DNA from: Hemileia vastatrix | Lineage: Eukaryota; Basidiomycota; Pucciniomycetes; Pucciniales; Zaghouaniaceae | Direction: 5' to 3' | DNA length: 64,000 bases | Assembly (NCBI GenBank): GCA_030280995.1 | Contig: JASXTE010000008.1 | Coordinates: forward strand, 17,199,212-17,263,211 | Notes under the pieces: generated by a model | Database searches by the model: none | Told to the model about the DNA's origin: nothing | The model's input: only the letters and a program-made list of their open reading frames with translations | Made by a program: the position numbers and the translations under genes | Part shown: positions 8,510 through 53,116 of the stretch, piece by piece | Position numbering within the stretch: position 1 is the stretch's first letter | Layout: the number at the start of each line of letters is the position of its first letter

Positions 8510-9938
8510 TTACAAGTCCTCAACCATCTCCCCTTCTTCCAGCTCTTTAATACATTTCTTCTCCTCAAATTTAGCTTTAGATATAATAGCCTTTTGGCAA
8601 TAGTATAGATTATCCTTATTTGAAGGATCCTTTGCCAAAAGATCACTTAAATGGTCAACAAGATGAGTAACTTTTTCTAAAACATTCACCTCTACATACC
8701 CTGATATATCTGGCACAATTATTTTGAGCTTTCTGAGGACTTCCCATAACATTTTAGTGACCTGAATGGATGATCCCAACCTGGTGAAAGTTCCATGTTC
8801 GATGCAAAAGGTTGTCTGATGTATCAAAGAATTAGAAGGCCATATCCCCACCCATACTCCATCAACTTTCTCCAAATCCAACATCCATCCATTTTCAGGG
8901 AAAATTAATTGTCCACCTGTTTTCCTGGTATATTCTGAGCTCCATGTACCCTCAGAGAGTTGCCCTGATAAGGTTGTTGGTAACCAAACCCCAAGAGAAA
9001 GTTCTGTAGCATCTATATCAATATGAGGGATATTTCTGAAGCCATCATTTGTCCAAGTTATATTTCCACCAAATTCTTCTTGATCCCCATGAGGAGGGAG
9101 TCCCAAATCACTGCAAAAAGATAATGCCTGCTCATAATATTTAGAGGAGATTTCCTTAAAAAAGAAGGCATATAATTTGTAAATAAATTCTAGATGTTGC
9201 TTCACTTCTTCAATACTGATTTTCCCAATTGAGTAAAATCCTTGAAATTTGAAACAATGATATTTAAAATCTGAATAAAAATTAAAGTGAAAGATAAATA
9301 ATTGTTTTTAATAATGAAATACCAAAATTAAGGACATGATCATTTGCAGCCCTTTTATCTGCCCCAAAAATCTTCCCATGACCACCTGCTTTCTTACGTG
9401 ACCCATTAATAGTAATTTTTTGCTCCAGTGATTTGAAGTAGTTGCAGCATAATCTGGCATCATCTAGCTTTCCAAGACTATTTAATTCTTTAAGAGTATA
9501 TGATTTGAAAATGACTAGAAGCATTGATTCTTTCTTCAGATCAAGAAATTTTGTCCCCTGTTTGAAAACATTATAGATCCCATTACTAAGGTACAGTTTC
9601 TGAGTTTGAGGATTCAATATTTTAGGGTTATTGAAGGGTGCACTTCTAAATTTTTCTCCCCTTAAGTATTTGGGTTCCCAAAAATACATCCGTCCAGATT
9701 TGCAACCTATACTGGCACAAACAGCCTTGCCTTTTTTATAGACTCAGAATAGTTATTCCTTCAACCTATATCTGCGAAAATTGCCTCAAATTTTTTCATA
9801 GACTCTGAATAGTTATTTGTTTTCCCATTTTTCTTCTTTCTAGCTGTCCTGAGAGTTATAGGAACTATAAATTAAGGACAAAAATATAATTTATTTTTTT
9901 AATATTTTAAATTAATAAAAATTTCCATACCTTTCCAT
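8510..9938 (-). pseudogene. TET/JBP-like 2OG-Fe(II) dioxygenase, copy 1
   Basis: Three exons: a tiny 8-nt exon 9931-9938 (ATGGAAAG), then 9323-9848 and 8510-9240. Exon 1 ends in phase 2, and the second intron (9241-9322, GTATTT...CAAG) is in phase 1. The middle exon has KKAGGHGKIFG. The last exon carries the oxygenase core: NITWTNDGFRNIPHIDID (HxD iron ligands), GGQLIFPENGWMLDL, WPSNSLIHQTT (distal His) and FTRLGSSIQVTK (2OG-binding Arg). This order is the TET/JBP pattern, a family that oxidises 5-methylcytosine or thymine in DNA. The core is intact. The N-terminal part has a TGA at 9761-9763 (CGA would fit), a one-base loss in an A-run near 9737, and a 57-bp tandem duplication (9710-9830). 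Protein about 421 aa if repaired. Function on DNA is inferred from family only. Confidence 0.75.
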
Positions 9939-10339
9939 GGTGTAAGAACTATAGAAAATTCAAAGTAATTAGGAAATAATTAAATATAAATACATGTTTT
10001 ATAATTTAAATAAAATAGCAGGAAATTTTTTTTATCAGAAAGAAAGCTGGAAGAGAGACCTGGATGCTTCAAGAACTTACCTGGAATTTTTAATCCCCCT
10101 TTCCTTTCTGGATTACTATAGTTTTTAAAAGTTATTTACTTGATCACTACCATTATTATGAGAAAAAAAACTATATGATAAAAAGAAAACAAGGGAGGGC
10201 TAGTTTGTGCAGACCTGCTACCTGGTCTCATCAAAGAGCCAGATTAATTTGAAAACTAATATTGTTTACCAGAAGTTTTGGTTTCAGCAGGTGGAAAATA
10301 AGGAATAAGTGAGTAGGAATCCTTTGTTTTAATATTATT

Positions 10340-11370
10340 TTATTATAAGCACAGTCTGGATTGGAGGCCAGTGGGAAATGTTTCTGCTGTGTGGAAGCAA
10401 ACTTGCTTGCTTTTTTTTAATTGATTTTTTTATTTCTTATTTATAATTTTTTTTTTGTCTCCCAGCCTGAGAAGTGTGGCTAGGACACCTGCAGGCAATC
10501 TCGCTGCTGTCTGGAAGCAACATTTCTTGGATTTTTTTATTTTTATTTTTATTTTATTATTTATTTATTTATTTATTTTATTTAATTTTTTAAATTTATG
10601 TTTATTTTTTTTGGTTTCCCAGCTGGAGCAGTGTGGCTGGGAGACCCGCTAGTGAGATTGCTTGCATTTTTTTATTCTTTTTTTATTTAATTTTTTTATT
10701 TATTATTTTTTTTTTTGGTCTCCCAGCTAGAGCAGGGTGTCTGGTAGACCCTTGAGCAAAGTTTCTGCTGTCTGGCAGCAACTTCACTTGAATTTTTTTT
10801 CTTATTTATTATTTTTTATGTAATTGTTTAAATTAATGTTTATTTTTTTTTGGTCTCCCAGCCAGAGCAGTATGGCTGGGAGACCCATGAGCAATGTTGC
10901 TGCTCTCTAGAAGCAACATTTCTTGCATTTATTTTTATTTTTATACTTATTTTTTTTTTTACTAATTTTTTATTTTTATTTTTAATTTTTTTGGTCTCCC
11001 AGCCAGAGAAGCATGACTGAGAGACCTGCAAGTGATGTTACTTCTGTCAGAAAGCAAAATTTCTATCATTTTTTATTATATTTTATTTTAATTAATTTTA
11101 TTTTTTATTTTTAATTTTAATTGGTCTCCCAGCCAGAGCACCATGGCTGGGAGACCCAAAAGCAAAGTCACTGCTGTCTCACAGAAACATTTTTTGCTAT
11201 TTTTTATTTTTTATTTTTTATTTTTTATTTTTTTATTTTCTTGGTCTCCCAGCCAAAGCAGGATGGCTGGGAGACCCACAGGAGATTTTGCTGCTGTCTG
11301 GAAGCAACATTTCTTGCACCTATTTTATTATTTTATTTATTTATTTTTTCTTTTCTTTGGTCTCCCAGAA
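10340..11370 (+). repeat. Hairpin minisatellite, about 8 units of 105-155 bp
   Basis: Each unit has a hairpin GGTCTCCCAGCC ... GGCTGGGAGACC (clear at 10612, 10852, 11124 and 11244; weaker at 10457, 10716 and 10993). About 20 bases later comes a second stem, AATGTTGCT ... AGCAACATT (10893-10901 with 10912-10920). Each unit ends in an A/T tract of TTTTATTT type. The first and last units are degenerate. The array starts about 0.4 kb upstream of the start of the minus-strand TET/JBP gene. Open frames called through it are repeat artefacts. Confidence 0.85.
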
Positions 11371-11596
11371 AAAAACAAAAACCAAAAACCAAAAACCAAA
11401 AACTGAAAACTAAAAATAAAAAGCCAAAAACCAAAAACCAAAAACCAAAAACCAAAACCAAAAACCAAAAACCAAAATACAAAATACAAAGCCAAAAAAC
11501 AAAAAACAAAAACCAAAAACCAAAAACCAAAAACCAAAAACCAAAAACCAAAAACCAAAAACCAAAAACCAAAAACCAAAAACCAAAAACCAAAAA
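11371..11596 (+). repeat. (CCAAAAA)n simple repeat
   Basis: There are about 25-30 copies of a 7-base ACCAAAA unit with a few variants (11400-11415, 11478-11510). It begins directly where the last hairpin unit breaks off. The long hydrophobic frames on minus are read-through of this repeat. Confidence 0.9.
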
Positions 11597-12180
11597 ATAA
11601 ACACAAAAAACAAAACAGAAACAGAAAACAAAAAGAAGCATAGGTTGAGCCAAAAAATTGAAATATGTTTTATCTTTGCATAAATAGTATCTAGCCAATG
11701 TGTATGATGTTTCATATAAATAATTGCTTTTTTATTTTATTAAGTTCCCTCAGAAACACTCCCCTGGAAGGGATATTCACAGGCAATTCAGCTTCTTTTA
11801 TAGCAGTGGAAAAGTTTGTATATAATTTCTCTTTGCTTCCCATTTATCTTCTTCACACCTCCAGAATCATATTAAAAAAGAATCAAAAACTAAACAAAAA
11901 ACTTGTATTTGTTTAATAAAAATACTAACTACTTCACACTACAAAAAGAGACCAATAAACAAATTCTTTAAAAAAAACAAGCTAAAATTCAAGGAAACTC
12001 ATAAGTTAATAAATGGCTAGGAGTATAAGAGATGAATAATAGTGAAAAAAGGATGATAAAAAATAAGAAAACTAAGAAAAGTACAAGTGATGATTTTAGA
12101 AACTGAAAAGAAAATAATAAATAATATTATAGTTTTATTTAAAATTTGTCTTAGGATTGCAAGCCTCTACTCAACCAGTT

Positions 12181-13454
12181 TTAAATTTTTAAATCTTCCA
12201 TGAGTTGGAGATGAAGTGCAGTATCCTGTAATGTATGATCTATTCCTTGATATATTGTATGTGTGAAAAAGATCTCTGGATCATGATTTTCTGGAACAAT
12301 ATGAGCCAAATTTTCAGTTCTTTCTTCATTGCTTAATTGAAACCAATTTTCATTATAATTTTCCTGTACATTTATGTTGTGAAGAATGATTGCACAGATA
12401 ATAACATCATAAATATTTGCTATGTGCCACAAGAAGCATGGCTGAGCAATTATACCCCAGCATTATTTGAGAGCACCAAAGGCACATTCAATATCTTTTC
12501 TGCAAGAAGTCTGGAGGTTCTGATAATTTCTACCAGTATCATCTTAAGGATGGTGAAGTGGCTTAACAAACACAGGCCAAGTTGGATAAATCCCATCAGC
12601 AAGATAATATTCATGAGTGTACTGATGGCCTTTTATATTAAAATAAACTTCATTATATTTCCCTATAGATTCAATCATGAGAAAAGCTAGTATAATATTT
12701 CTCTACATGAAATTAAAAACCAGATATAAAGTTGTGATAAAAAGTACTACTATTCAACACATTAATATCATTGAGTGCACCAGGTGTTCCAAAAAATTCA
12801 TGTCAAAACCTTAAATTTTTTAATGCCACAGCTTCCAGAACCATTTTTATCATACCTTCCTAACCTTGATACTGGTCAGCCCAGGAAGCAGGACAGTTTT
12901 TTCATGTCCAGTGTGTTCCATCTAAGCTTCTTTTACAGCCATAGAAGACTCAATCCTCATTTTCCTTTAAAATCCTTTTTAGCTCTTCAGGGTTTGGAGG
13001 TCAAAAATTCAGAACCATATATTTCCATCAAATCTTTAACAAAAAATTTTAAACATTTAATTGCAGTGCTATCACCAATTTGAGTGTATTCATCTGTGAT
13101 GTCAGCTGATACACCATATGCCATTTGTTTGAGGGCTGATGAATTTTTTTGGTTTGTTGATAATCCCCAGATTCCACAACAGTCCTGTCATTGAACCCAA
13201 TAGATATTATGAGCCTTAAATTCATTGGCTAATCTCAAAAATATTTTTTTATTTGCTTGGAAGCAGCGGTTAAAGTAGGACTCCGGGTACTTTGGGTTAT
13301 CTCCAAGATAATCTGAGATGAGACAATTGTTTCCTTGAGCTTGCTCACAATGTATTCTCCTACAAGTAAAAGTAGTCTGATAATTTCCTAGAGGATATTG
13401 CTCATTAAATGTTTGCACACTTTTGAGAAGAGTTGCAACCATTTGGTTTCTCAA
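12181..13454 (-). pseudogene. PIF/Harbinger DDE transposase (decayed)
   Basis: On minus the N-terminal block (13188-13454) holds YFNRCFQANKKIFLRLANEF, the RRFRM-like entry of DDE_Tnp_4 proteins. The middle (12440-13180) is full of stops but keeps ADITDEYTQIGDSTA and, about 12500-12620, a GIYPTWP-like stretch and an ECAFGALK-like stretch (usual RKDVERAFG). The C-terminal block (12181-12432) holds ANIYDVIICAIILHNINVQE, matching the ACIILHNMIVED signature. The catalytic Asp/Asp/Glu cannot be assigned with certainty. It lies in the same element as the Myb-like ORF, as expected for PIF/Harbinger. It is dead as a protein. Confidence 0.75.
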
Positions 13455-13697
13455 AAAATTTCACCAATTGATGGGTGGCATGGTATGCAGAAAGAGGGGG
13501 GATGTAAGGATTCAATGATGGATGTAGAGGACAGGATATAAGAATTTAATGATGCATGATTGTGAAACTCAAGATTTAGAAAAAATTAGTGAATTCATAT
13601 TGAATACAATTTAAAAAAATTGCAGAAAGAGGCCAATTAGCCTAATTTTTTAATGTCATGCAACATTTTCTAATTTAATTTTTCATGCACAATTGTA

Positions 13698-15288
13698 CAG
13701 TCACCTCCAGAAAGTGATCATCACTGGTTTTTTTGAAATTGATTCAATACTACTCATATGATCAACAACAAGACATGCATACTGACTGAATAGGATCTCA
13801 AGAGCAAGAATATAATAACAAAAATAAGAAAAAAGCTATAGTTTTTGAATGTTTTTGAATTTTCTGAGAGGTCATTTTTGAAATCAGCCAGGAAATATCT
13901 AAACAATATGAATTTTGATTCATGAAATACCCCAGACATGTTAGATAAATGTTTTAAAAAAATAAATTGAGAAAAAATTATTAAAAAGAAAATATTACTG
14001 ACTCAACTCCACCACCATGGGTTACCAGCAAGTAGAACCACCTATAGATTCTATCACAGCTTTCATTTGAGATGGCATTGACTTGAAAATATTTTCAAGC
14101 CTAGAAGATGAGAATTAATTCCAAGTCTTTTGCAGGGCCTCATGCATTTGTGCTATTGAATTTGGGTTATGATGGTAATGAATCCTGCATTTAAGCTCAT
14201 GCAGACATTTTTGATATAATTTAAATCAGGTGACTGTGGTGGCCAGTAATCTATCTTCTCTATATTGTGATTTTCTTGGAATAGCTTGGATATTCATGCT
14301 TTATGAACAGGAGCATTATCTTCCATTAAAATAAGTTTTTATTTTTGGTCTTTTTTGGTGAGAAAAGTTAAAAGAGTTGTTTCATATATGTTATGAATAA
14401 AGTTGGAATCTTTTCATTGATTCAGAGGAAGAAGTACAAGTGGGAGTTTAGTTTTCTAAAAAAATGCACCCCATACCATAGTTGAAGTGTGTCCAGTTTT
14501 AAAAGTTGGCTGAAGAAAATCTTCAGAAAATTTGTCTTCAGCCTTTTGCCAAACCAATACTCTTGGGGTCTATCCTATTTCAAAAGATGATTCATCAGAC
14601 CAAACTACTCTTGACCAGTCTCTTACTTTCTGATTAGCATATTTGCAAGCAAATTCAAGCCGTTGTGCCTTGTGAGTTTTGCTAAAAAAAGGTTTTTTAA
14701 TGGCTTTTTGATTTTTGAAACCAAGTTCATGAATACACTTTCAGACACTATTAAGAGAAACACTAGTTTCAAGACTGTCTCTAAATTAACTAAATTTGCA
14801 TTTACATTTTGAGAGAACAGTGTGCCATAGTCTTCTCATCTTGCAAGGGCTTATTCTACAAGGGTGGCCACTTTGCTTGGCTGACAGAACTGTCCCTCTG
14901 ACACAATAATTTGTGATTAATGATGCCACTGTTGTTTGGGGTACTCCTAATGTTTTGGAAATAAAAGTTGAACTGTGTCCCCCTTTTGATAAGCCCACAA
15001 TATGTAGCCTTTCATCAGTTTTTTGCTCCTTCCTGGCTGTTTTAGCATAAGGCATTGTCTGTCGAAATCATGAAAAATCATCATTAAAAATCATTTGCAC
15101 ATAACTTAATGAAAATGACATGAAACATCAATCTTAAGATACATTGTGATTTTTCAAGAGGAAAATGTAAAAAAACAATATGGACAAAGTGGCATAAAGA
15201 TGATATTGGTGGCAAGAATTATATTTAAAAGTCTGGTGGGCAAAGGGCTCAATGCAGAAAAGTGAAAATCACTTTCTGGAGGTGACTG
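13698..15288 (-). mobile_element. Tc1/mariner element inserted in the Harbinger-like transposon
   Basis: The inverted ends both begin CAGTCACCTCCAGAAAGTGA and are flanked by TA (13696-13697 and 15289-15290), the Tc1/mariner target duplication. The element is 1591 bp. It interrupts the right subterminal repeat of the 9-kb element: flanking CACAATTG and CATGCTC join in the uninterrupted left arm (GTATGTACAATC). It is therefore younger than the host element. Confidence 0.9.
13999..15055 (-). pseudogene. Tc1-type transposase (decayed)
   Basis: The start (15055, MPYAKTARKEQKTDERLHIV) is a Tc1 helix-turn-helix region: GLSKGGHSSTFISKTLGVPQ and TTVASLITNY are the paired-like domain. Further down on minus are a STMVWGAFF-like block, then LILMEDNAPVHKA and WPPQSPDLN, the second and third catalytic blocks of Tc1 transposases (D..., PxSPDLNxIE). 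Multiple stops interrupt the frame from about 14790 on, so it is inactive. Confidence 0.85.
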
Positions 15289-15299
15289 TACATGCTCTT

Positions 15300-20801: not shown

Positions 20802-20841
20802 CACCACAGAAAAAATGGGGGGGTATTGCTAGCAATACCCC
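20802..20841 (+). repeat. CACTA element left TIR
   Basis: It starts CACCACAGAAAAAATG, then seven G. It ends with a perfect 22-bp palindrome, GGGGTATTGC followed by TAGCAATACCCC (20820-20841). Confidence 0.85.
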
Positions 20842-22741
20842 TTTATTGAACTCCGTTGAGCCACAAATCTATGCCTGAATTATGCACACATCATCACCAT
20901 GTAGGAAATTTTTTGGCCTTACATTTAGTCAGAGATTTGTCACAAATTGAGCTCAAGATGAACCTACATTGATCACCGTTTGATCTTGCAAAATCCTATT
21001 TTGATCATGAGTTGAACTCCCTTTGATCTCATTTTGATCTAACATAAGCTTTTGCATTCCAATATGTCAACTATTCACTTTCAAAAAGATTCATAATGAA
21101 TTTCACATGGAATATTAGAACCGAAACCAGTAATTTTGAGTAAATGGCTCATCAAAATGATTAATCTACAATAAAATACCATCAAAATTCAATCTGATTA
21201 CTGAAAACTTTTGGTAAAATGACTAATAGATATTTAAATTGGAAAATAATATTCCATTTCTCAATTTCAAATTCAAAATATAAATCCTCATTTCAAATGT
21301 GAATTTTGTAGATTCCTTGCCTTTCTATATTATGAGTAATATTTTAGGTATTGTACGCCTTTGTAAATATGATGTTGTGCTGCTAGAAATTATCTCTGTT
21401 TCAATTCGACTTTATTGAAGCTTGATTCCAGAATGATACATATTTTATAACTATTTTGAGAAAAAAGTCACTAGTAATGAATTTAGCCTTTTATCTGTCC
21501 TTTATTAAAACTCACTTAATCCTACTTAAATCCACATTGACCCACAAAAACCTTATTCGGGATATTTTTTAGCCCAGGATGATTCAAGATTGGAGCAAAA
21601 TATTATTTTACATATCCAATATGCCTATTGATTAAATTTCTTCAAGCTTACTTAAAATTCACATTAACATTAACTTTCACAGAAAATATTTAACACAAAT
21701 CTTGAGAATATAGTATTTAAAATCAAAATAAATATAATATAATATGCTTAAAACAAAATTTTTTTTCTGGATTAATTGAAAAAAAAAAATTTTCATTTGT
21801 GAAAATAGAAAAAATACTATCCATCCTGAATTTAGAATTCATTTTTAAAAATTTAATGCCCCCTCACTTTCAAGTTTATCATGTATTTCAAAAATTATAT
21901 TTTTGATAACTTTGTGAATAGTACACCTTAGATATAAACTTGGGGATATCAAAAACTAAAACATCAGCAAATTGAAATGTTTTTTATTGTTATGAATGGA
22001 AATAATGATTGAAAAACACCATTAGAGCAAGTTTTATTTTGAATAATAGGCATACTTTCTCATGTAAATTTCAATAAAAATAATTTTTATTCTTACATAA
22101 GTTGAAAAGGATACATTTGAGCTCAAAAAGAATTAAAATTGACAAAATAAGACTTCTATAATTCATATTCAAAAATGAAATCACCCTTCATTATCTACCT
22201 GTAAACTATTTTAAATTAAATAATTTCAAAGCCAGTATATACTGATGTTATTTTTTCTTCTAAAAAATTTATTATATAGATTAATAGTCATAAACAGTTG
22301 ACATAGATGTTAACTTTATATAAGCAATCTTTAATGCATAAAATGATAGAACTATCTTTTATGTAAAAAGTGATGAAGGAAAAAAATATTATTAAATTTT
22401 TGATGCACTATCAATAAAATTGAAGATAGAGCATATCAAAAGTTTAAACTTAATTTCAATTTTGATATCATCATTTTATTTTATTTTACTTGAGTAGAAA
22501 ACAGATTTTAAATCTCAATATAATTTTAAATCCCATTAGTTTGTAGATTTCAACATTTGAAACAATGAAATAAATATTTATGAAAGAATTTTACAATATT
22601 TGCCCTTCTAAAAACTCATAAATCCAACTTCAAATCTTCTAACCTTCACAAGTAACCACAATGCATTCTGAAAATACTCTATATTTAAATAATTAAAGGT
22701 AAATAAAATTATGTTTTTATTCTTTATTTCAATTTTTGATA

Positions 22742-22777
<36 letters not shown>

Positions 22778-26665: not shown

Positions 26666-26670
26666 AAATA

Positions 26671-38816: not shown

Positions 38817-41800
38817 CTACAAATTTCCCAAATCCCAAATTAACACAAAGATGTTAGTCAACAGAAAATAAATTTGATTAATTTTTTCACTCACTACTGT
38901 CTGCAGTCCAATGGAAGTGAAAACCTTGTCTTTGATTCCAAACATTCCTTTTTTGTGCTTGACAGTAGCTGCATGTCCAATTATTGCATCTTTCTTAATC
39001 ACAATTTGAGTTGCTTTGGCTACTCTTACTAACCGACAATGCACTTGTGGGAAAAGCTCATAGGGATCCTTTGATGTTTCTTCTTGACGGAGCTCCTTGA
39101 AAGGACTTACGATTAAATATATTTGATCATTCTCTTCCTTTGACCTGAAAAGATCATCAATTTGCCCAAACTGGCTATCTTTTCCATAGTAGAATTCAAT
39201 TGTTGAATTAGCAGTGTGTTGATGGTAACTAGTAAACCTCTTTCCATGTATCAATATGCTTGCTACATTTTCAACTACCTGATCCCCACTTTTCTCCGAT
39301 GGTGTCAAAGCTAGTCTTGAAGTTTCTTTTCCTATTCGTGCCCTTACCCATTTAGTAAATAATTCCATACTTAGATGGATCCATTTGTTTTGTTTATCAA
39401 GATCAATATGGAGTTTTTTAGTCTCACATTGATCATTATCTTCAGCTTCACCAAGATCCAATACCCCGACTTCCGATACCAATGTTTGAGCATTGTTAGT
39501 GGTATTTCTCCTGTGGTAAATATTAATAAATTAGCACAGCTGAGTTTTTAAATCATTGCTTACAAACATTACATATGTGGATGGTGATTGTTTGGAATTT
39601 CAGATAATATATGATTCACCCGCTCTCCAGACCAAGTAGCTGTACCTGATGGTGGACCAAGACGCTTTATCATTTCAGGATAATGTTGAGTGATATGCAG
39701 ATTTAGCTTTGCATTAATATTCTTCCAACCCTCTTCCAGGCACTCACGATACTCTAACAGAAATTGATCTAGATCTTTAAACTCATTAGTCTGTATATTT
39801 TTTAATGTCAAAAAATTGGTGATTGAGCATAATGTTACAAGTGACTTGAGAAGATAATATTCTCTTGGTTTTTCAGCTGAGGAAGCTGAAGATTCAGATT
39901 CTTTAAATTTTTCAAACCAAAGGGGTATAAGTGACAAAGGGAAGTAGAGAGTATACAGTATGTGCCATTCTGCTGCCTTGAGGGATCCTGCCTTTTTAGA
40001 TCCTACTGATTTTGGAACTTGTTTTAGCCAGGAAGGTCTTCTTACTTGATCAATCATTTTCCATACAACCTGTAGCTCTTCTTCCATGATTCGTGGATTA
40101 CTACTACCTTCATTTTCTTTCTCCTTACCTTTCCTTTTATTTTCTTCATCTCTAGCTGTCTCATTTGATGAGTGAAATCCTTCACTCTGTCATATGCTAA
40201 TGCTCCTTTGCCTTAAGTTATACAATGAATTCATACTGTCACTGCTGTGAGACTGTATTGAGGCCAAATCGCTATATGGAGGAATAAATTTGGAGCTGGA
40301 TGACCTACTCTGGCTTCTTGATTGATTTTTTCCCAATCCTTCATTATCTAGTCCATGATGACTTGATGACTGTCTTGAACTTGTAAGTCTTTGCCGCTTG
40401 TTCTGTCTTGTGTGTCCTGTATCATCATCATCATTATTTGTGGTGCTTAAGCTACTTCTATGTTTTTTTGAATGTTTGTGCAGTGAAGCATCAGAAAAGA
40501 AATTGTCATCTTCTTCTCTTACATTCCAGTTTTTATCCTTTTCCAGCTTTCTTTCTAGATCTTTTGCTGCATTTTGGATTTGAAAATAGCTTAGACTGTG
40601 ATCTTTTAGGTTGCCAAGCATATGTGAATGCATAACATCAATTGAGCAATATTAAGTTGGACGCCAATATTCAAGGTTATTCAGCTCACTCCATTGTACC
40701 CCATGATTCTGAACAATTGATACACGCTCCCAATGTGACTTAGAATTTTTTCACTTTGTTGCCCAGAACATATGATCCTCATGATTCTGTAATGAAAAAT
40801 TTCCCACATTCTTTTCACTAATTTCATCTTTAGAGATATTACAGAAAGATCAGAACATTCTTGCAGAGTGACTCAAAAAGCCAGCCAATTTTTGTATTGC
40901 AGGAATGTCACCTATCAAAGAGAACAATGCAACTCTTAATTTCTGGCCTTGTGTATAAAGATGCGTCTTTTCAATCAATATACCATCTCATGGAGTTTGT
41001 AGATCATTAACCAGTGGTTTTAGAAGGTGATTAAGCTGTTCACTTGTGGGTTCTGTTGGTCCAGGTATGATAGCATACAAAAAAAGATTTTCCATTTTGT
41101 ATCTATCTTCTTGAGGTAGGTTCATACACACCATCATAATATTTCCTACAAACTTCTGATGACCTCTAATCCTATTACCACCAGGCCTAAACCAGTCGAC
41201 ATATAAAGTAAAAATTAAGTTGCCTGAAGTTATTGTATATTCATCATAATTGCTATCCTGAGCTGGAGTGGTAATGGGAAAGTTTTTCCAAATTGAACCA
41301 TCGCAAACATTCTTCATCAAATCACACTCTACATGTTCTGCCACAGGGGTTTTCTTCTCAATCAGAAGCTCAAATTTGAACAGTTTGATCTTTTCCTTAA
41401 GCCAGTCGATAAAAGAATGGTGATGAAATGTTTTAAGAGATAAGTATTTTACATATTCTTGATGTTCCTCCATCAAATACAGCCTTTCATCACATTTAAC
41501 TGCAATTTGTTGTGCTCCAAACATTTTTAAATAGCGCTTTGATGATGAAAGAAACGGTTGATTGCAACATAGTATAGATGGTTGAGATTCAGAGTTATAC
41601 TCATAAAGAGCAAAGCATTTAGGACAGCATGTTTTAGTGAAAAATGATTGATTGAGCTTTAATCGACTAAAAACTGTATCTATCAAGCGTGGGATCAGGA
41701 AGACAATGCTATCAGAATCCAGTATTCAACTATCACCTAGAAGTTTGAGCTTCTTAATTTCTTCATCCAAAAATTGAGTACAACCTTCTTTGCTCAAATG

Positions 41801-42193
41801 TTGAATCAGAGAAAGCTTTGCTGCCTGCCACATAATTATTTGGCTATACTGTTCCCCAAGATTTGAGTTTCTAGATACTGTTGAAGATACTTCTGCCCCC
41901 AATAGCAACTTCCCCTATGTAATAAATCATTGAAACATCATAAAGACTTTTATTCTCACATTGAACTATAGATATACAGCTTACTGTTTCTGTGGAGCTG
42001 GAACTTCCAATGTTAAGTGAATTCTTGGAAGAAATAACCATTTGGGCCTTCCTATTTCTTTCCTCTTGATGTTTTGCATAAGAATTAGAGCTTTTGAAAG
42101 CCATACCAACTTCAAAGGAACCAGAAGAATTTTGTTACTTTTTATTGACACATCCAAGATCTTGACATTGACATACATGAAAAATGGAGGCAT
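38817..42193 (-). pseudogene. CMC-superfamily (CACTA; Tnp2/Plavaka-like) transposase, decayed
   Basis: Blocks on minus in order. A Cys-rich start CQCQDLGCVNKK (about 42160). A helical segment EQYSQIIMWQAAKLSLIQHL (41726-41908). CCPKCFALYEYNSES with LCCNQPF (41570-41640), a zinc-binding block. The catalytic-core landmarks TLYVDWFRPGGNRIRGHQKF and LFLYAIIPGPTEPTSEQLNH (41000-41220), diagnostic of Tnp2/Plavaka-type transposases. SIDVMHSHMLGNLKDHSLSY (about 40600), the usual IDxMHxxxLGxxKxH block. RRPSWLKQVPKSVGSKKAGS with AAEWHILYTLYFPLSLIP (39569-40087). A C-terminal region (38817-39482). At least five in-frame stops and several frame changes make it non-functional. A Ser-rich, low-complexity segment lies at 40190-40520. 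It would have recognised the CACTA-type TIRs of this element. Confidence 0.8.
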
Positions 42194-43269
42194 TGTAATT
42201 GTGATAATTGTAGGAATAAGTTAGCTATTGGAAGTTACCGATTGAAGGTATTCCTTTTTTTGAAAGGCACTAGCTAATATAAGCTACATTTTTTTATCAA
42301 AAGAATATGATGGAATATGTGTTGAAATTATTTAATTTTAAATGTTTAATTTTTAATCAGATAAATTATATATTAATTAAAAGTTATGCAGTCTACTTTA
42401 TTTGTATTCTGTATACTCTCTGCATTTGTACAACAATGCATGCATGTTTATCAGAATATTTTCTATCATAGAAAAAATTCTATTGTACGCACAAGCATCT
42501 TAATTATTTTTCTATCAAATGCCTTCCGAGTTATATCTAACTACCCTATAATCATTTGATTTTGATAAAAATTCTTAGTTATGGACTATAAGAAAATTAA
42601 TCCATATTTTTAACATAATTATTTTAAAAAGTACCCCAAAAATCAAAGTTAAACCCAATAATAAGGTTAATATTTTGTAAAAAAAAATCACAAACATATT
42701 TCTTTCACTTTGAAAATTGGTCTGTACTAGGTAAAATTTTCCATAAAGAAAAAATCAAAAATACTCAAATAATAGATGCTACAAAAGTGTAAACCTTAAA
42801 GCATTACAAAAAATCTGAAACCTTGTATAAATTTCTATACATTAATGTGATGAAGTGACACTCTAGTCTAACTATTCAGGTTGAACAAAAATTACTCAAT
42901 GGAATATGTATTACTATCATATTGGACCAAAAATAATTTTTTGGTAATCAAAAAATGAACATAGCCTCACATTTATCAAATTATTTTTGTGGAAGAATTT
43001 TTTGAAAAGAAAAAAAAATCAGTTTCTCAAATGAGTCTGCTTTTATCACATAATCATTCTCTTAATTTTATACCATTCCTTTTGAGTTCAAATTTCATAT
43101 AAAAATATAATTTATGCATATTATAATGCCATGAAGTTGAAATATTTCTTATTCTTAATTTATGTGATATTTCTCCTTAAATCAACTTTGATCATAAAGT
43201 TTTGGAGCTCAACAATTTATCCTTCCTCTTTGTTTAATTTAATTGAACACTTTCTTAATCTAATTCTTT
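42194..43269. other. Spacer upstream of the transposase
   Basis: The transposase (minus) and accessory gene B (plus) diverge from here, so their promoters probably share this AT-rich stretch. No coding feature. Confidence 0.45.
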
Positions 43270-44387
43270 ATGAACCCTAGTAGCTCTTACCTTCCTCATG
43301 GAAACCTGCCCACAAACACACGAACACTTAATAGAGTTTTTAATGAGACTTTACCTCCATTCAATTCTCACATTTGTAGATCTATACACAATTTTTGTCA
43401 TTCACTTTTGGATATGTCACCAGAATCAAATGGATGGAAACAAAACCCTACTGAAGAGCAATAGACAGATTTTTATCATTCAAAATAAATTCATGCAACA
43501 TCGCCTTTGAACTACCTCATCCAGAATCAAATTCAGCAGTTTCGGAAAAGTTTCCACCAATTTTCTGTGAATCTTTTATTGACCACCTTCGCATGTGCGG
43601 TTTCCCAGGGTCAACTTTTGCTTGGAACCTAGATTGGTTTGACAAATGGAACCAGGTCTTAGCAAATATTCTCATTAAACACTGGGACAATGCCTTAAAA
43701 ACCAATAATTTGATTGCATATCCAATTGACTCAACTCCAATTAGCTTCTCAAATCAAATGGGAGTTCTTCACAGTTGGTTTTTAGGTCATGCCGATAAAT
43801 TAAGACTTGGGAAGGATTCTCATAGCTCTCAAGAAATAATCAAAATGAGAAAGCATAAATATAGAATAAAAAAAAGTATGAAAATCCCCTTTTTTTCAAC
43901 CATTTTTATTTATGACCTTTATTTCAAATAACAAAGATTCTTAGAATTCAGTTAACCAAACTAAACTTCTTAAACAACTTCCACATTGTGAAACTTATCA
44001 CAACCTTTTCACAAACATCAAGTGTTGTTCAGACACCGAAATTGATAATGATGGATCATTAAGACGTATCTTAATGCAATGGAGGTCTGAAGATTTTTCT
44101 AAAGTTGCACAATATCTTGACCAACAACACTTTGATATTCGAGATACTTCAACCTACTCTGGAAGTGTGCTAAAGGACTTGGCCTTGTACAAAAAATCAG
44201 TTTGGTTTCAACATTATCCCCTAACCTTAATCCTTCTCATGTCCCCCGGGGTTTGCCAAATGACTGTTATTCTCCCTTATATCTTGCATCTCTAAATCCT
44301 CAACAACTCAGACTTTTAAATCCTCAAAATCCCATAAATTTACCTGCTCTCCTTAAAATTCTTTCTTCCTCTAATGTGAGTGATTGA
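43270..44387 (+). pseudogene. CACTA accessory gene B, paralogue of accessory gene A (decayed)
   Basis: It starts MNPSSSYLPHGNLPTNTRTL at 43270. After a frame break near 43460-43510 it continues in another frame with MCGFPGSTFAWNLDWFDKWN, QVLANILIKHWDNAL and EIIKMRKHKYRIKK. Another intron or break near 43870 is followed by KVAQYLDQQHFDIRDTSTYS (44080-44160) and, in the frame open at 44202-44387, VPRGLPNDCYSPLYLASLNP with PINLPALLKILSS. This last block matches the LPxNCYSxxxLxxL end of accessory gene A, and the W-N-Q-V block also matches, so A and B are related. They flank the transposase on opposite strands. Function unknown. Confidence 0.45.
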
Positions 44388-44519
44388 CAAACTCCCTTAA
44401 TAATAGGTTTGCACACTCATACTCCTCATTTCCACTGTTTGGGACACTTAGCCTTGAAAACAAAAACATAATTTTAATGATTACTATTATCATTAAAATT
44501 TATAGAAATGAAATTTGCC

Positions 44520-46798
44520 TTACATTGTTAGCTCCATTTTTTTCCTTTGAATCTTATACATGCTGAATTCTATACTTCCTTGTACAAAATAATTCAAAAT
44601 ATTTATTTCATTTTGCTGCCCCATTCTATACAGCCGATCAACAGCCTGCTGCCCAACTTCTGGATTCCAATTTGGCTCCTATTTAAACATTGAACATATA
44701 AAAAATTTAATATTTTTGTTCTTAATATTAAATAAAAGACATTGAGCTCACCATTATATATACATTTTGAGCACACCTGAGATCTATACCCACTCCTGCA
44801 GCCTGAATCGTTCCAACCAAAACTTGGCAATTTTTATTAAAATGGATTCATGCATATTTTTGTCTCGCTTTGTCCTGCTGAGTTCACCCATAAGCTGGGT
44901 ATACCTAATATTGTGGTCATCTAAAGCCATTTTTATTCTATTTTGAAATATTAGAAAATTGTTTTTAATAAGACAACACAATTTTGTAAAACAATTCATT
45001 ATAGAATCACTTACATCTGGAAAAAGTCTGCAAAGTTGGAGAATATAACAGCTTTTGGAAAATTTATACCCCTTTTACCAGACAAAAAGTTTTTTAAGTG
45101 GCCTATAAGATGACAAATCTTTGCGGAATGCTGCCAGGTGAAATCAAAAGTTGGAGTTTCATCCAGATTTATGTAGATTGGATGGTTTCAGAATTTTCTT
45201 AAAATCATAAGCTCTCTTAGAAACTCAGATGAGTCCCAAGGGATGTCAGTGCTTCTGGAGAGCCCATATCGCTCAGTGAATCCTTCTTGAAGCACATCAA
45301 GTTTAGACCTCCATGAATCTGCTAATTGAACCAATACCCCCCTTTGAATCTTTTTTGGAAGAGACAAAATTGCATCCTTTGTTCTACCTAGGCTTATGAC
45401 TTTCATTAAGTGATTGATTGATTTAATAGAATTAGCCTTCCCTTTTTGCAAACCTGGAAAAAGGAAATTCTTCCATAAACAGTCTTCTTGCCACTTTTCG
45501 ATTCTAAGAAAAAATATGCGACTTTGAAGGTCAGTGGGCCTGTTCTGAAGTGGAGTTCCAGTCAAGCATAGTCGGTGTTGGGATTCCAAGTCAAATATTG
45601 TTTGAGCCCTCTGTGAGTAAGGATTTTTAATTTAACTAAAAGAATATTTATAAAAATTGATTATAAAAATTAAGTTTTAAGTTTTAGATATAGAAATGGG
45701 CACTAACTGAGCTTCATCTAAAACAACTCTATACCAAAAGAGCTTTTGAGTCACCGGTATCTTTTTTTGGCTTTGATTTTTTGACATTTTTAGGCTAGCT
45801 GTTTCATAGGTCTTTAAAACAATAGCAGTTTCCTGTAGCTCATTGACGTTAGTATTTTGACAATCCTTCCCATAAAGAACCTTGAAAGGAAGCGCATTAT
45901 CTTCAAAGTGCACACTTATTTCATTGATCCAATTTGATAGTGTTTCCATGGGGCATATAATCAGTGTGGCTGAACTCTGATTAATACCTTCTTGATTTTA
46001 CAATACCTGGAATTGTCTTGCTTCACTTTGAGTTGCACTTATAAGAGAAAGAGTTGAAAGCGTCTTTCCCAAACCCATATCATCAGCAAGTATTGACCCG
46101 TTTCTTTCAGGGGTTAATTGATTGTTAGGAAACTGATCTTTATAGTCATCGAATCCAGTTCTAAGCCAATGGTTGTCCTGGTGCCTCCACATGATATCCA
46201 ACTTTTTCTTTAACATTTGTTCATTTTCAATCATAAAATTTATTGCTTGAAGTTGATGTGTTTTGAGAACTGTTTTGATTCCTCGGATAAGTTGATCAGC
46301 TTTCCAATCTTGAGTACTCTGAGATATTTGGAAAGAGCCTTCAGAAATTTCATGCGGGATATTAAAAAAGATAGTGGAGTCGTAGTTCAGGATCAGACAT
46401 AAATCGATTTGAGCAGAAGAAAATGCTTCTTTAGCAAGACTGATTAGTGTACTTGAAGAAAAGAGACATCCCCAAAGTTGATACTGATTCCCAAAAACTG
46501 GAACCAAGTAAGCATGAAAATAGAAAGGCTTCATAGGATTCAAGGCACTTCTCTGGTTTAAATGGTGAGATTCAGACCCAATTTCACCCAATAGTGGTCC
46601 AATGTGCTGACTCTGCACTTGAGAAAGATTACCAACAAGGGTTGGTTTTCTTTCTTCAAATAGTCCAAAAATATGAACATTCAAATGGCCTCGCAGTAAA
46701 ATTGTGGGGGTTGGTGAGTTTTGAAATCTTGAAATTACATTCATATAAATTTGATCAATCGTTATTGAGAACTTTCCAACACATCTGAGACTTGACAT
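44520..46798 (-). pseudogene. SNF2-family ATPase (Rad5/HLTF-like), nearly complete
   Basis: ATG at 46798; stop TAA 44520-44522. In order: N-terminal region with LKTHQLQAINFMIENE; motif I ILADDMGLGKTLSTLSLI; motif Ia SSATLIICPMETLSNWINE; motif II VVLDEAQ (usual DEAH); motif III HRLCLTGTPLQNRPTDLQ; DLQ spacer; LMILRKF-stop-NHPIY; motif IV AVIFSNFADFFQ; motif V VLVGTIQAAGVGIDLRCAQN; motif VI NPEVGQQAVDRLYRMGQQNE. All core motifs of the SNF2 translocase are visible, in the Rad5/Rad16/HLTF arrangement; no RING finger was seen. Introns (for example GTATTG...ATCAG near 45970-46000) keep the frame. Lesions: TGA at 45188-45190 and a one-base frameshift near 44850. It lies just inside the right TIR of the CACTA element. 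Such ATPases move nucleosomes or strip proteins from DNA; its role in the element is inferred. Confidence 0.8.
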
Positions 46799-47653
46799 AT
46801 TAAGTAAGAATAGTATCTGAAGATAGTGGTTGTTAAAAGATGAATTGAACCAAAAAATGAATAATCAGTTTTGAATAAAACGACAAAATAACTTTTTAGC
46901 ATATGCTATTCTAAGCTCATAATTCTTTCACATGTATTATTATTATCTTTTTGAAAAATATTGGAAGTAAATCAATGATAACTGAAATGAATAATATGGT
47001 TTAAAAATAAATCTTGAGCCTATAGAGAAAATTTTGGTTTGTGGAGGAAGAAAAATTTTCTCAATAAAAATGTGCTTTATTGTTACATTATAATCACAAA
47101 ATAGAATAATTTCACTCTTATTACACTTATTTATGCTTCTGTCTAATAGTAAAATGCTTTAGATGTCAGTTCAAAATCCAAATTGAAACTACTACCTTGA
47201 ACAATGTCTTGATACTAACATACTCTTTGTAAGTCTTTGGACAGACACTTATGGTGATCTCAATAATATTAAAATTGATTTGAATTGTATGTTTTATCAA
47301 ATATCTATGTAGTCTAGTGTAATAATTGAGATACTACAGTTTAACCTTCTGTTACCAACTTGGCAAGAAAATATATGTAGATATTCTTAGAACAAATATC
47401 AAATTTTTCTTTCCACAAGATGGGAAAGTGAATATTATGATATGTTAAGTGATATGTTCAAGCTTTGCTCAATCTGTGCTCAGCTCAAAATCAAAGTAAT
47501 CACCAAGCTCCAAGAGACCTGTGATTGAGTTCGGTTGAACCTAGGTCTAACTGATTACCAAATCTTTGTCCAATTAATTTAAATCTGGTTTCACAATGAA
47601 CTCCCAACAGCCTTCCAACAGCTTTCCAACCACTTCCCAACATTTTTAAATGA
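46799..47653. other. 5' flank of the SNF2 gene up to the right TIR
   Basis: No coding signal. Near the TIR, TTGG/CCAA-rich short repeats (CCTTCCAACAGCTTTCCAAC, about 47610-47630) look like subterminal transposase-binding repeats. Confidence 0.45.
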
Positions 47654-47693
47654 GGGGTATTGCTAGCAATACCCCCCCAAATTTTCTGTGGTG
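47654..47693 (-). repeat. CACTA element right TIR
   Basis: This is the inverted copy of the left TIR with two mismatches in the A/T tract. The internal palindrome (47654-47675) is unchanged. Confidence 0.85.
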
Positions 47694-49407: not shown

Positions 49408-49588
49408 GTGGAAAATTTTTAAAAAGTCTGAAAAACTTCACTTTTATGGTTAGTCAATTCTCAACTACCAAAGCTAGTAAAAGAGCTCATTTTATATACA
49501 GTGCCTACAGGTTCCACCTGAAGGATAGTCATACATTGAGAAAAAAAATTTTAAAATTTATAAAATACACACTGATTAAATATAATTG

Positions 49589-49630
49589 GGGGTATCAATG
49601 TTGACAGATCCACAATTAAATTAATTGTGG
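49589..49630 (+). repeat. Left TIR of the third transposon
   Basis: GGGGTATCAATGTTGACAG, then ATCCACAATTAAATTAAT. It matches the right end in inverted orientation. Confidence 0.7.
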
Positions 49631-49979
49631 ATAAAAATCATTATACGCCAATTATCTTCCACAATTATTTTTGCTAATAACTGGGTTATTAGACCTTTTA
49701 CGTGTCAATTTTAATCTCTATCTGAAATTTTTATCCTCAATTTTTCATAACCACATCTTGGAAAACTTTCGGAATGTGCCAGCCTCCCTACCTTGCTGTG
49801 CACTCCCATCCTATCTATTCATTCTATCCATTCAAACCCCTCCCCATCTCATCTGTTTATTTCTTCTCCTTTTAATCTTCAAATATCTCAAAATACCTCA
49901 TCATCATAAATCTTATCAAAGGAAGCCATCCCCTAGATTCTCTTCAAATCCCATTAATCCCTCTTTCCCCTGCTCATCC

Positions 49980-50900
49980 AAGAAATCAAAGATCATTCAA
50001 CTAAAAAAAGGTGATCATCTCATACTTATCAACTGGCTGAAAACTAAAACTAATTATGATTCTTGTTTTGGTACTGAGAGTGCAACTAAAGTAGGACATC
50101 CCCCTTCATAAAAAATCAATGGATATCTTCTAACGGTCAATGAATTATGAAATAAGACAAATGGAAGGATTAATCTTTTGCGTAAACAGATTTATGAACA
50201 CTTCAAGCACTATCAAGACAAATACAATAAGGCTAAGACTATTTCATCTTCCACTGGTTTTGGTATTACTGACCTTGATATCAGTAAGTGCATCAAAACT
50301 ATAGACAATAAAATTGATTCTTTATGTACTTAATATAAAGATATAGATTCCATATTTGGAAATCAAGCCAATTTTAATCCTGAAAACATGTTGGATGGAG
50401 AAAATGATATCTCCAAACATTATTTTGAAAGAAATATTTTTCCTTCTGCTTCTACTCAAGCCTCCCCTCATTTGACTTCCACCAATCAAGAAATCTTTTC
50501 AATTGATCCTTATGGCAATATAAACCAGCCTGACCTCACTCCAGTGAGCTTTTATTTCTTGTCTAGTTGTTTTATTTTTTTATTCACATCTCTTTTTTTA
50601 TTTCTAAAAATGCTAATGAATGAAATGAGGATCCTCAAGCAAGAGAGTCTGAAGCTTGAATAGGAGAATAAATTTGAGATTTCTTAAAAGAGGGATGAGA
50701 AAGCACATGACTTGGAGGAGAAGAAATTTGAAAAATAGAAAGTGGAGAAGGCTCTTGAGTACAATTTCCTATTGTATTAAATGAAACTCAAGTATCAACT
50801 TGAAGATTATCCAAAAAAGAAATTTTTCTTGATAGAATGTGTTAAAGCTAATAAATCTGTTGAGGAAATTGAATTCTTAATGAAAATGTTTGATGACTAG
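49980..50900 (+). pseudogene. Myb/SANT-like transposon protein (decayed)
   Basis: The plus-strand frame from about 49980 reads SSKKSKIIQLKKGDHLILIN, then WLKTKTNYDSCFGTE and TKVGHPPS. After stops it continues LLRKQIYEHFKHYQDKYNKA, STGFGITDLDISKCIKTIDN and DSIFGNQANFNPEN. This succession (W..D..L..WL....NY...G...TK.G.PP, then a helical segment with STGFGLT) is the Myb-like DNA-binding ORF repeatedly seen next to rust and mushroom transposons. At least three stops break it. An acidic/basic coiled-coil-like tail (EEKKFEK...KVEKALEYN) follows and merges into the tandem repeat. Confidence 0.5.
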
Positions 50901-51165
50901 TTTTTTATATCATTTATATTTAATTCTAAATTTTTTTTGAATGTTTTCTTGATAGAATGCATTAAAGCTAATAAATCTGTTAAGGTAATTGACTGCTTAA
51001 TGAAGATGTTTGATGACTAGTTTTTTTTATTTTTTTGTTCATATTTCAATTCATTTTTTTGAAAGTTTTCTTGATAAAGTGCATTAAAGATAAGAAATCT
51101 GTTGAGGAAATTGACTGCTTAATGAAAATGTTTGATGATTAGTTTTTTTTATTTTTTTCATTCAT
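50820..51165 (+). repeat. Tandem triplication of a 115-125 bp unit (Myb-like ORF 3' end)
   Basis: TTTCTTGATAGAATG-GTTAAAGCTAATAAATCTGTT and ATGTTTGATGACTAG recur at about 50826, 50946 and 51064 with small changes. Each unit contains the last codons and the TAG stop of the Myb-like ORF plus a T-rich tail. Confidence 0.8.
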
Positions 51166-51544
51166 ATTTCATTCCAAATTTTTTTCAAGTCAAAAAATTT
51201 ACACATCTTATTTGAAAATTTGGCAATACCCCCCTCCTGCAATTTAATCTGGAAGGGGGTAAGGATTACCAAATTTTTATTCTATTTCATAAATAATTAA
51301 TTAAATCAATTAAAAAAGATAATTAACCAAGTAAAGGAATTTCAAATACTATCTTCCAATGATTTTATGAGCAAATTCAAATAAAAAATATGACAAGAAT
51401 GGTATTATGAACTCATTGATAGAATATTATTGAATGAACACCTTTATACAGCACAAGGGCTTCATGGTACAATACTTAATTTGATTGATTATCTTTAATA
51501 ACTGATAAATTAAAAATTTAAGAAAAAAATCATTTTGAAATCCT

Positions 51545-52096
51545 TTAATTACCATATTTCAAACCCCTTCCACATGTTTCAGTAGCCATGGACCCTTCAC
51601 CCCTTACCTTACTCACCCAGTTTATCAAACAATTATTAATCTGAGAAGAACATCCAAAATGAGTAAACTTTTTGCAAGATTCCAATCCAGGAGATGCCTT
51701 AGTAGTTTGATGATTATCTCTTGAAGAATTCTGAATCACTTCCATAATCCTATTTCCTAATCTGAATTCCATGATAAATTTATGATCCGGGAAGTATTGT
51801 CCATGGCCTTTGATTTTAGCAGGTGAAGGGATTGGTCTTCCATTAATAGGATTGATATAACAAAAAAGACAAAAAGTAAGAATATTAGAATCAGTTTTGT
51901 CAACATGGCTCTAGCTATGAGATCCTCCATAGTTGATGATAAAATTAAAATAAAAGATAGAATCATTACTGAGCTCAACCCATTCTATATTTGGAAAATT
52001 GGGAAGCCCAGCTATCTTGGCCAGTTTATGATTAGATTGAAATGCACAAATATATAATTTTTTCAAGCAATTGGTCAAGAAATAATTGAGTGATCC
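51545..52096 (-). pseudogene. TET/JBP-like 2OG-Fe(II) dioxygenase, copy 3 (degraded)
   Basis: On minus one frame runs from about 52096 to TAA at 51545-51547, broken only by TAG near 51920. It reads NYFLTNCLKKLYICAF, LAKIAGLPNFPNIEWVEL, NFIINYGGSHS-stop-SHVDKTD (HxD ligands), LTFCLFCYINPINGRPIPSP, GHGQYFPDHKFIMEFR, EVIQNSSRDNHQTT (distal His) and FTHFGCSSQI. This matches copies 1 and 2 block by block: HIDID, GGQLIFPE, WPSNSLIHQTT, FTRLGSSIQ. The 2OG-binding Arg is His here (CGT to CAT fits G-to-A decay). The stop next to the HxD motif and the lost Arg make it inactive. Upstream (52097-52150) further stops hide the N-terminal half. It is absent from the annotation of simple long frames because it is short and broken. 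Confidence 0.65.
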
Positions 52097-53115: not shown

Positions 53116-53116
53116 A

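What the first reader, a model, noticed from the sequence alone, without database searches (positions are those of the whole stretch)
8510..52096. Three TET/JBP-type dioxygenase genes carried by three different DNA transposons within 64 kb
Seen: three genes (8510-9938, 28397-30307, 51545-52096) share the block order HxD ... GG-x-FP ... W-P/S-S-x-x-x-H-x-T ... F-T-R/H-x-G-x-S-x-Q. Each lies inside a separate TIR element: PIF/Harbinger-like with TAT duplication, CACTA-type with TTT, and a GGGG-TIR element with TTA. Known: Iyer and colleagues reported lineage-specific expansion of fungal TET/JBP genes linked to DNA transposons (KDZ class). Inference: here the gene has become cargo of at least two other transposon superfamilies, possibly as an anti-silencing enzyme acting on methylated transposon DNA.
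Basis: partly seen in the sequence, partly recalled or inferred. Interest (0 to 1): 0.9.

Follow-up and report, generated by a model that had tools for sequence, protein, structure and literature searches.

The report
Jumping genes carrying DNA-demethylase-like enzymes
Three neighbouring jumping DNA elements, probably in a rust fungus, each carry a gene related to the enzymes that strip methyl marks off DNA; such cargo was described in 2025, but one carrier here is of a type not described in that paper's main text, and another, 27,000 bases long, also carries a chromatin-remodelling-type motor.

Summary
The observation largely holds. All three genes match Pfam PF20515 (Tet-like 2OG-Fe(II) oxygenase) and lie inside transposons. 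E1 (6690-15297) is a canonical PIF/Harbinger: TTA duplication (not TAT), Plant_tran transposase in a copy, NAM-type partner. E2 (20802-47693) is a 26.9-kb CACTA element with 39/41-bp inverted repeats and TTT duplication; a 22-mer from its TET gene occurs at 1,296 places in the genome (at most 1 mismatch; reversed control 0). E3 (49588-59587) is a second Harbinger type (PHISTA; TA duplication in relatives), split by a Copia insertion and holding only a TET fragment. So: three carriers, two superfamilies. Other copies of E1 and E2 run unbroken through the TET gene.

The concept is published: Kojima 2025 (PMC12730594) reports TET/JBP genes in Harbinger/PHISTA, EnSpm and five more transposon lineages of rusts, with the same anti-silencing idea. 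I did not find in that main text: a canonical PIF/Harbinger carrier; a SNF2 ATPase beside TET in one CACTA element; His in place of the 2-oxoglutarate-binding Arg (21 of 23 sampled TET loci, all 17 assigned to PHISTA-type elements; E1 and E2 keep Arg). Anti-silencing remains inference. Verdict: new variant of a known kind.

The parts
6690..15297 (.). E1: canonical PIF/Harbinger element; TTA duplication at 6687-6689 and 15298-15300; terminal repeat AAGTATGTACAAT / GAGCATGTACAAT (right arm split by the nested element)
   Evidence: left edge seen in copies L031, L032, L033, L035, L036; right end in L036 and the window
7112..8015 (+). E1 NAM-associated partner protein (two open stretches)
   Evidence: 7605-8015 PF14303 E 1.5e-7; 7112-7504 no family
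8510..9743 (-). E1 TET-like gene (open stretches 8510-9307 and 9282-9743; intron between inferred)
   Evidence: PF20515 E 7.9e-17 on 8510-9307, no family on 9282-9743; HxD, H and Arg present
12184..13460 (-). E1 transposase remnants, PIF type, with stops
   Evidence: YYLADGIYP and SLDGTH motifs (family reading of the motifs recalled); PF04827 E 3.5e-29 in copy L036; window pieces 12184-12462 only E 0.047, 12990-13187 none
13698..15288 (-). Tc1/mariner-like element nested in E1's right end (TA duplication)
   Evidence: inverted ends; HTH_SB PF25787 E 6.1e-9, 36 bits, below its cut-off of 43
20802..47693 (.). E2: CACTA element, 26.9 kb, TTT duplication (20799-20801, 47694-47696), 41-bp inverted repeats
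   Evidence: copies
28397..30307 (+). E2 TET-like gene; one in-frame TGA at 29672-29674, upstream of the catalytic block
   Evidence: PF20515 E 7.2e-19 on 29675-30307; frames; 1,296 places of a 22-mer
31302..33545 (-). E2 open stretches of unknown function
   Evidence: 31302-32093 and 33111-33545 no family at E <= 1; 32127-32747 only weak matches far below cut-off
36713..41725 (-). E2 CACTA transposase region
   Evidence: PF02992 E 3e-6, 27.0 bits against cut-off 28.6, in window 40988-41686; 40.7 bits, over cut-off, in copy L038
43455..44292 (+). E2 open stretches of unknown function, kept in copy C42
   Evidence: window; L038; no Pfam family in the L038 counterparts
44523..46864 (-). E2 SNF2-family ATPase gene
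   Evidence: PF00176 E 1.1e-13, 1.4e-9 and 4.3e-14 in window pieces; 1.9e-17 and 3.3e-20 in copy L038; window pieces 44523-44678 and 44787-45074 hit no family and are assigned by eye
49588..59587 (.). E3: PHISTA-type Harbinger element, GGGGGTATCAATG ends
   Evidence: alignments to L013, L024, L025, L027, L028, L029; ends
49905..50546 (+). E3 third protein of PHISTA-type elements
   Evidence: 76% identity to the L029 third protein
51545..52096 (-). E3 TET-like fragment with an in-frame stop; His at the Arg position
   Evidence: PF20515 E 4.2e-8
52417..57949 (+). Copia retrotransposon inserted in E3
   Evidence: direct repeats 52417-53096 / 57211-57870, 84%; E3 homology resumes at 57950-57953; gag PF14223 E 1.1e-7 at 53117-53584
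59023..59226 (-). E3 Harbinger transposase remnant
   Evidence: 57.5% identity to the L029 transposase piece, which is PF13359 E 9.7e-13

Best explanation
Each of the three TET-like genes is cargo of the DNA transposon around it: a canonical PIF/Harbinger (E1), a 27-kb CACTA element (E2) and a PHISTA-type Harbinger (E3). Shown: family membership, element borders, and copies that carry the gene. Inferred: the enzyme is made from the element, oxidises 5-methylcytosine on element DNA, and so loosens silencing or lowers C-to-T mutation of the element. In E2 a SNF2 ATPase encoded by the same element would help by moving nucleosomes or other blocks off methylated DNA. The window copies themselves are mostly decayed: E3 holds a fragment, E2's gene has one stop, and E1's TET stretches are open beside a broken transposase.
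For: PF20515 hits. E1: 39 scored places of 1,197 candidates; 15 matched stretches, window included, run unbroken through the whole TET gene. E2: 21 scored places of 2,591 candidates, window included; 18 cover the whole TET gene unbroken, 1 more has a 261-bp interruption, 2 are partial; identity 92-97% besides the window. 22-mer at 1,296 places against 0 for the reversed control. SNF2 region: 75 distinct places, window included, the others 96-97% identical, from two searches that scored 40 each. At 2 of 25 SNF2 places other than the window an exact TET 22-mer lies within 4 bp of the expected distance on the same strand; chance mean 0.005 for 26 places. HxD...H kept in all three window genes. 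Kojima 2025 reports the same kind of cargo and argues for escape from silencing.
Against: No enzyme activity, expression or methylation data were examined; a 2026 review (PMC13297926, passages) calls transposon-encoded TET/JBP enzymes yet to be functionally characterized. E1 copies look close to neutral decay: dN/dS 0.77 and 1.08 for the two TET exons and 0.99 for the NAM stretch over 7 copies. 21 of 26 SNF2 places examined have no exact TET 22-mer within 20 kb of the expected place; many SNF2 copies may lack this TET gene or carry a diverged one. The lists of 21 TET and 75 SNF2 places shared only the window. The structure prediction failed (pLDDT 36.8), and a profile search of the PDB found no credible relative.
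Confidence: 0.6

Rival explanations
1. Passive passengers: TET genes were captured with flanking DNA and persist only because the transposons copy themselves; they have no role for the element.
For: E1 copies decay near neutrally; E3 holds only a fragment; E2's window gene has a stop.
Against: Kojima 2025 finds related TET genes in seven transposon lineages of rusts with reading frames mostly not disrupted; here three carriers hold one, and a 22-mer of E2's gene is found at 1,296 places.
Confidence: 0.2
2. The TET genes act on something other than 5mC (thymine, 6mA, RNA) or with another co-substrate, above all in the His-bearing clade.
For: The Arg of TET2, NgTET1 and CcTET that binds a carboxyl of 2-oxoglutarate aligns by motif with His in 21 of 23 distinct sampled TET loci (1 Asn, 1 Tyr). 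CcTET R385A abolishes activity (PMC11040006, passages). CMD1 uses vitamin C rather than 2OG (PMC7854593, passages). Kojima leaves another activity open.
Against: E1 and E2 keep Arg, as do 5 of 6 E1 copies. The equivalence of the position rests on motif alignment only; no usable structure. CMD1 itself has an Arg at the aligned place. The loci came from the top of one search, a biased sample.
Confidence: 0.13
3. Independent insertions: the TET genes sit in small elements of their own that landed inside larger transposons.
For: Nesting does occur: a PHISTA TET element sits inside an E2-type TET gene in L020.
Against: Copies of E1 and E2 align unbroken through the TET gene from outside it. Kojima saw no terminal motifs or duplications around the TET genes he compared.
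Confidence: 0.05

Closest known systems
TET+ DNA transposons of rust fungi, PU type (Kojima 2025, PMC12730594)
   Same: TET/JBP dioxygenase as cargo of Harbinger and EnSpm/CACTA elements in Pucciniomycetes; PHISTA elements with TA duplications, transposase, TET and a third protein; CAC..GTG ends with 3-bp duplications; same proposed role.
   Different: Its rust TET+ Harbinger families have TA duplications (PHISTA); I found no canonical 3-bp PIF/Harbinger carrier in the sections read. SNF2 and Arg have 0 occurrences in the main text. Its supplementary tables were not read (no look-ups allowed).
TET/JBP genes linked to KDZ transposons (Iyer et al. 2014; recalled and as cited by Kojima; not held)
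   Same: Lineage-specific expansion of fungal TET/JBP genes with DNA transposons.
   Different: The carriers here are Harbinger and CACTA types.
Trypanosome JBP2 (recalled, no call)
   Same: SNF2 ATPase coupled to a TET/JBP dioxygenase.
   Different: JBP2 is one fused protein; in E2 the two are separate genes on opposite strands of a transposon.
Fungal DNMT5 and Rad8-type SNF2 proteins (PMC13297926, passages)
   Same: SNF2 ATPase tied to DNA-methylation chemistry in Basidiomycota.
   Different: DNMT5 writes methylation and is a SNF2-methyltransferase fusion; E2's SNF2 was not compared with it.
VANC anti-silencing proteins of Arabidopsis VANDAL transposons (PMC10398659, start of abstract in the listing)
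   Same: Transposon-derived protein that counters silencing.
   Different: VANC proteins are described there as sequence-specific anti-silencing proteins, not oxygenases.

Membership tests
TET/JBP (PF20515) dioxygenase | Profile match over curated cut-off | tested here: met
   62.4, 69.1 and 33.9 bits against 27 for E1, E2, E3
TET/JBP (PF20515) dioxygenase | HxD...H iron-binding triad | tested here: met
   invariant in 7 sequences including the three window genes
TET/JBP (PF20515) dioxygenase | 2-oxoglutarate-binding Arg (TET2 Arg1896, CcTET Arg385) | tested here: inconclusive
   Arg in E1 and E2, His in E3 and in 21 of 23 distinct sampled loci; equivalence by motif alignment only
TET/JBP (PF20515) dioxygenase | Oxidation of 5mC | not testable with these tools
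   needs an assay
canonical PIF/Harbinger (E1) | 3-bp target duplication (TTA/TAA recalled) | tested here: met
   TTA on both sides in the window and in L036, the 2 copies with both ends seen
canonical PIF/Harbinger (E1) | PIF-type transposase | tested here: met
   PF04827 E 3.5e-29 in L036; window pieces below cut-off
canonical PIF/Harbinger (E1) | Myb/SANT-like partner protein | tested here: inconclusive
   NAM-associated C-terminal domain PF14303 met; no Myb domain hit on the N-terminal stretch
PHISTA (considered for E1) | TA dinucleotide duplication | tested here: not met
   TTA; different terminal repeat
CACTA/EnSpm (E2) | CAC...GTG ends with 3-bp duplication | tested here: met
   39/41 inverted repeat, TTT/TTT
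CACTA/EnSpm (E2) | tnp2-type transposase | tested here: met
   PF02992 40.7 bits in copy L038; 27.0 bits, under the cut-off of 28.6, in the window
PHISTA (E3) | TA duplication | tested here: inconclusive
   not visible at E3 itself; 10 of 11 related loci with both ends seen
PHISTA (E3) | Harbinger DDE transposase, TET and a third protein in one element | tested here: met
   the third protein of L012 has a sub-cut-off Myb/SANT match (18.8 bits against 27) whereas Kojima reports no Myb/SANT domain in these third proteins

The most novel reading that the evidence does not exclude
E2 is a self-made demethylation machine: one high-copy transposon carries both a SNF2 motor and a TET dioxygenase, a two-gene counterpart of trypanosome JBP2. 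In parallel, the numerous PHISTA-type elements carry a TET clade that lost the 2-oxoglutarate arginine and may use another co-substrate.
Probability: 0.28. Interest if true: 0.8.

Novelty: new variant of a known kind. Interest (0 to 1): 0.58.

Why it matters
If the inferred function is right, these elements carry their own counter-silencing tools, and one genome offers a direct test: compare methylation and C-to-T decay between transposon families with and without TET, and with and without SNF2. The His-type clade would test how far the TET active site can change.

Tried and rejected
Terminal-repeat scans of the window alone were swamped by A+T-rich chance matches; borders came from copies, and for E2 from a comparison of its two ends. 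A protein search with the E1 gene found nothing at E <= 0.001 among 272 candidates. PDB searches by single sequence and by profile found no credible relative. AlphaFold2 on the three window sequences gave pLDDT 36.8; no fold search was run on it. The 18.6-kb query meant to span TET to SNF2 scored only 1 candidate, which matched 28300-37671 and stopped there, so it neither showed nor excluded linkage. The total number of SNF2 copies was not obtained (pattern search not answered). One search linked only the window between 21 TET and 75 SNF2 places; each list is a short top of many candidates, so I give it little weight. Considered and dropped: E1 as PHISTA (TTA duplication, different transposase family). 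The species was not identified; a rust fungus is inferred from the likeness to Kojima's rust elements.
Full report
1. Observation. The three genes were searched in pieces, as they stand. One piece of each hits PF20515, Tet-like 2OG-Fe(II) oxygenase, over Pfam's cut-off of 27 bits: E1 8510-9307(-) 62.4, E2 29675-30307(+) 69.1, E3 51545-51910(-) 33.9. The pieces 9282-9743 and 29010-29543 hit nothing, and 51911-52096 is below cut-off.

2. Genome. The window lies in an assembly of 747.6 Mb in 791 contigs. A PF20515 search there had 10,849 first-look candidates; 150 were scored and all 150 were over cut-off.

3. Element E1. A search with 6600-12000 scored 39 places of 1,197 candidates; 15 matched stretches, window included, run unbroken through the whole TET gene. 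The left border lies near window 6690 in five copies besides the window. TTA stands before it in 4 of these 6 (window, L031, L033, L036), TAA in L035 and CCT in L032. The right border is seen in L036 and in the window, where a Tc1/mariner-like element sits in the end repeat; both have TTA. Between the TET gene and the right end lie remnants of a transposase with PIF motifs and stops; the counterpart in L036 is PF04827, Plant_tran, with E 3.5e-29. The first gene's second stretch matches PF14303, NAM-associated, E 1.5e-7. I read this as a canonical PIF/Harbinger. Its copies are decayed: over 7 copies dN/dS is 0.77 and 1.08 in the TET exons and 0.99 in the NAM stretch, and the six other copies have 3 to 8 stops in the two TET exons together where the window copy has none. 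The window copy served as the reading frame, which favours it, and two copies cover the N-terminal exon only in part.

4. Element E2. The ends are CACCACAGAAAA... at 20802 and its inverse ending at 47693, 39 of 41 matching, with TTT on both sides; of 2,394 CAC/GTG pairs in the tested ranges the next independent one reaches 25 of 41. The element is thus 26.9 kb. A search with 26000-33600 scored 21 places of 2,591 candidates, window included: 18 cover the TET gene unbroken, one more has a 261-base interruption, two are partial; identity is 92-97% besides the window. A 22-mer from the catalytic block occurs at 1,296 places with at most one mismatch, the reversed control at 0. The transposase is tnp2-type (PF02992): 27.0 bits, under its cut-off of 28.6, in the window and 40.7 bits in copy L038. 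The TET gene in the window has one in-frame stop, at 29672-29674, upstream of the catalytic block.

5. SNF2. On the opposite strand of E2, 44523-46864, lies a SNF2-family ATPase gene (PF00176; the last pieces hit no family and are assigned by eye). A copy on another contig, C42, shares 23077-27172 (inverted), 27174-28945 and 36183-47350 at 89-93%, hence the SNF2 gene and the start of the TET gene; in the stretch fetched, a PHISTA-type TET element lies where the rest of that TET gene would be. Two searches, each scoring 40 places, gave 75 distinct SNF2 places, window included, the others at 96-97%. On contigs C2, C19, C26, C34 and C42 I compared 26 SNF2 places with the exact TET 22-mers; these lists are taken as complete there because the printed list runs in contig order up to C50. 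Three of 26, one of them the window itself, have a TET 22-mer at the expected distance within 4 bp, 5 of 26 within 20 kb, against 0.005 and 0.26 expected for 26 random places. So SNF2 and TET travel together in at least two further insertions, but most examined SNF2 places showed no exact TET match nearby; how often both are present is open. The lists and 116/119 shared only the window.

6. Element E3. Its left end GGGGGTATCAATG aligns with that of PHISTA-type relatives; homology breaks at a Copia insertion (52417-57949) and resumes to about 59587. A third protein and a transposase remnant are found. The flanks of E3 itself do not match each other, so its duplication is not shown; in 10 of 11 related loci with both ends seen the flanks are TA (L019 is the exception). 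Of the 20 ten-kilobase TET loci fetched, 15 align with one family whose ends are GGGGGTGTCAGTTC (in L014 the ends were not matched) and 5 are of the E3 type (L013, L024, L027, L028, L029, read by eye; the printout was cut). These 20 were chosen from the top 150.

7. Arginine or histidine. In TET2 and NgTET1 an Arg that the CMD1 paper calls strictly conserved binds a carboxyl of the co-substrate analogue, and CcTET Arg385 to Ala abolishes activity (PMC7854593 and PMC11040006, passages). At the place aligned by motif, E1 and E2 have Arg, and 5 of 6 E1 copies keep it. E3 has His. Of 27 distinct TET loci held (L004 and L029, and L009 and L015, are the same places), 23 matched the motif: 21 His, 1 Asn (L001), 1 Tyr (L008). 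Four (L003, L022, L023, L025) did not match it and were not counted. All 17 of the 23 that assigns to PHISTA-type elements have His; for the other 6 (L001, L002, L005-L008) the carrier was not determined. Kojima's main text has 0 occurrences of 'Arg'.

8. What is known. Kojima 2025 (PMC12730594) was read in outline, abstract and sections 5, 10, 23, 24 (part 1 of 2) and 34. It reports PU-type TET/JBP genes in Dileera, hAT, Harbinger (PHISTA), IS3EU, EnSpm, ESTA and Helitron elements of Pucciniomycetes, frequent transfer between lineages, and the idea that they counter methylation-based silencing or hypermutation. This covers the concept of the finding. Its main text does not mention SNF2. Two literature searches listed no title or abstract start on SNF2 with TET in a transposon; of the papers listed, one review (PMC13297926) was checked in passages: it mentions SNF2 in connection with DNMT5 and Rad8, and transposon-encoded TET/JBP as yet to be functionally characterized, citing Kojima. 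Kojima's supplementary tables were not read, so the E1 or E2 families may be listed there.

9. Mechanism. Shown: the genes are cargo of these elements. Inferred: expression, 5mC oxidation on element DNA, relief of silencing, and help from SNF2. The near-neutral decay of E1 copies, the stop in E2's window gene and the fragment in E3 give no support for activity of the window copies.

Noticed in passing
window 44523-46864: SNF2-family ATPase gene inside the CACTA element E2, with further copies; 75 distinct places listed, window included.
   Followed up: partly
window 23077-27172 against contig C42 (L037, L015): A 4.1-kb segment of E2 lies inverted in another copy, with one break near 27173.
   Followed up: no
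L020 1359-7806: A PHISTA element carrying a TET gene is inserted inside the TET gene of an E2-type element.
   Followed up: partly
window 61367-61691: Stretch about 80% identical to one end region of the PHISTA family in 12 of the 20 fetched loci, outside E3 (short transposase match at 61611-61682).
   Followed up: no
window 10350-11640: Tandem repeats in E1 with GGTCTCCCAGCC units, then AAAACC-type repeats; they align many times over between copies.
   Followed up: no
window 34560-36520: Dense inverted repeats around ATTAATTTTGATCAAAATTAAT in the middle of E2.
   Followed up: no
window 26840-27325: Stretch that looks G+C-richer by eye, with an open frame of 162 codons, in an A+T-rich surrounding.
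   Followed up: no
window 3101-4588: Protein kinase gene left of E1 (PF00069 E 3.6e-38 on 3101-3655; 3737-4588 no family), perhaps a host gene.
   Followed up: partly
window 17297-17830: Retrotransposon polymerase remnant between E1 and E2 (PF25597 E 5e-20).
   Followed up: no
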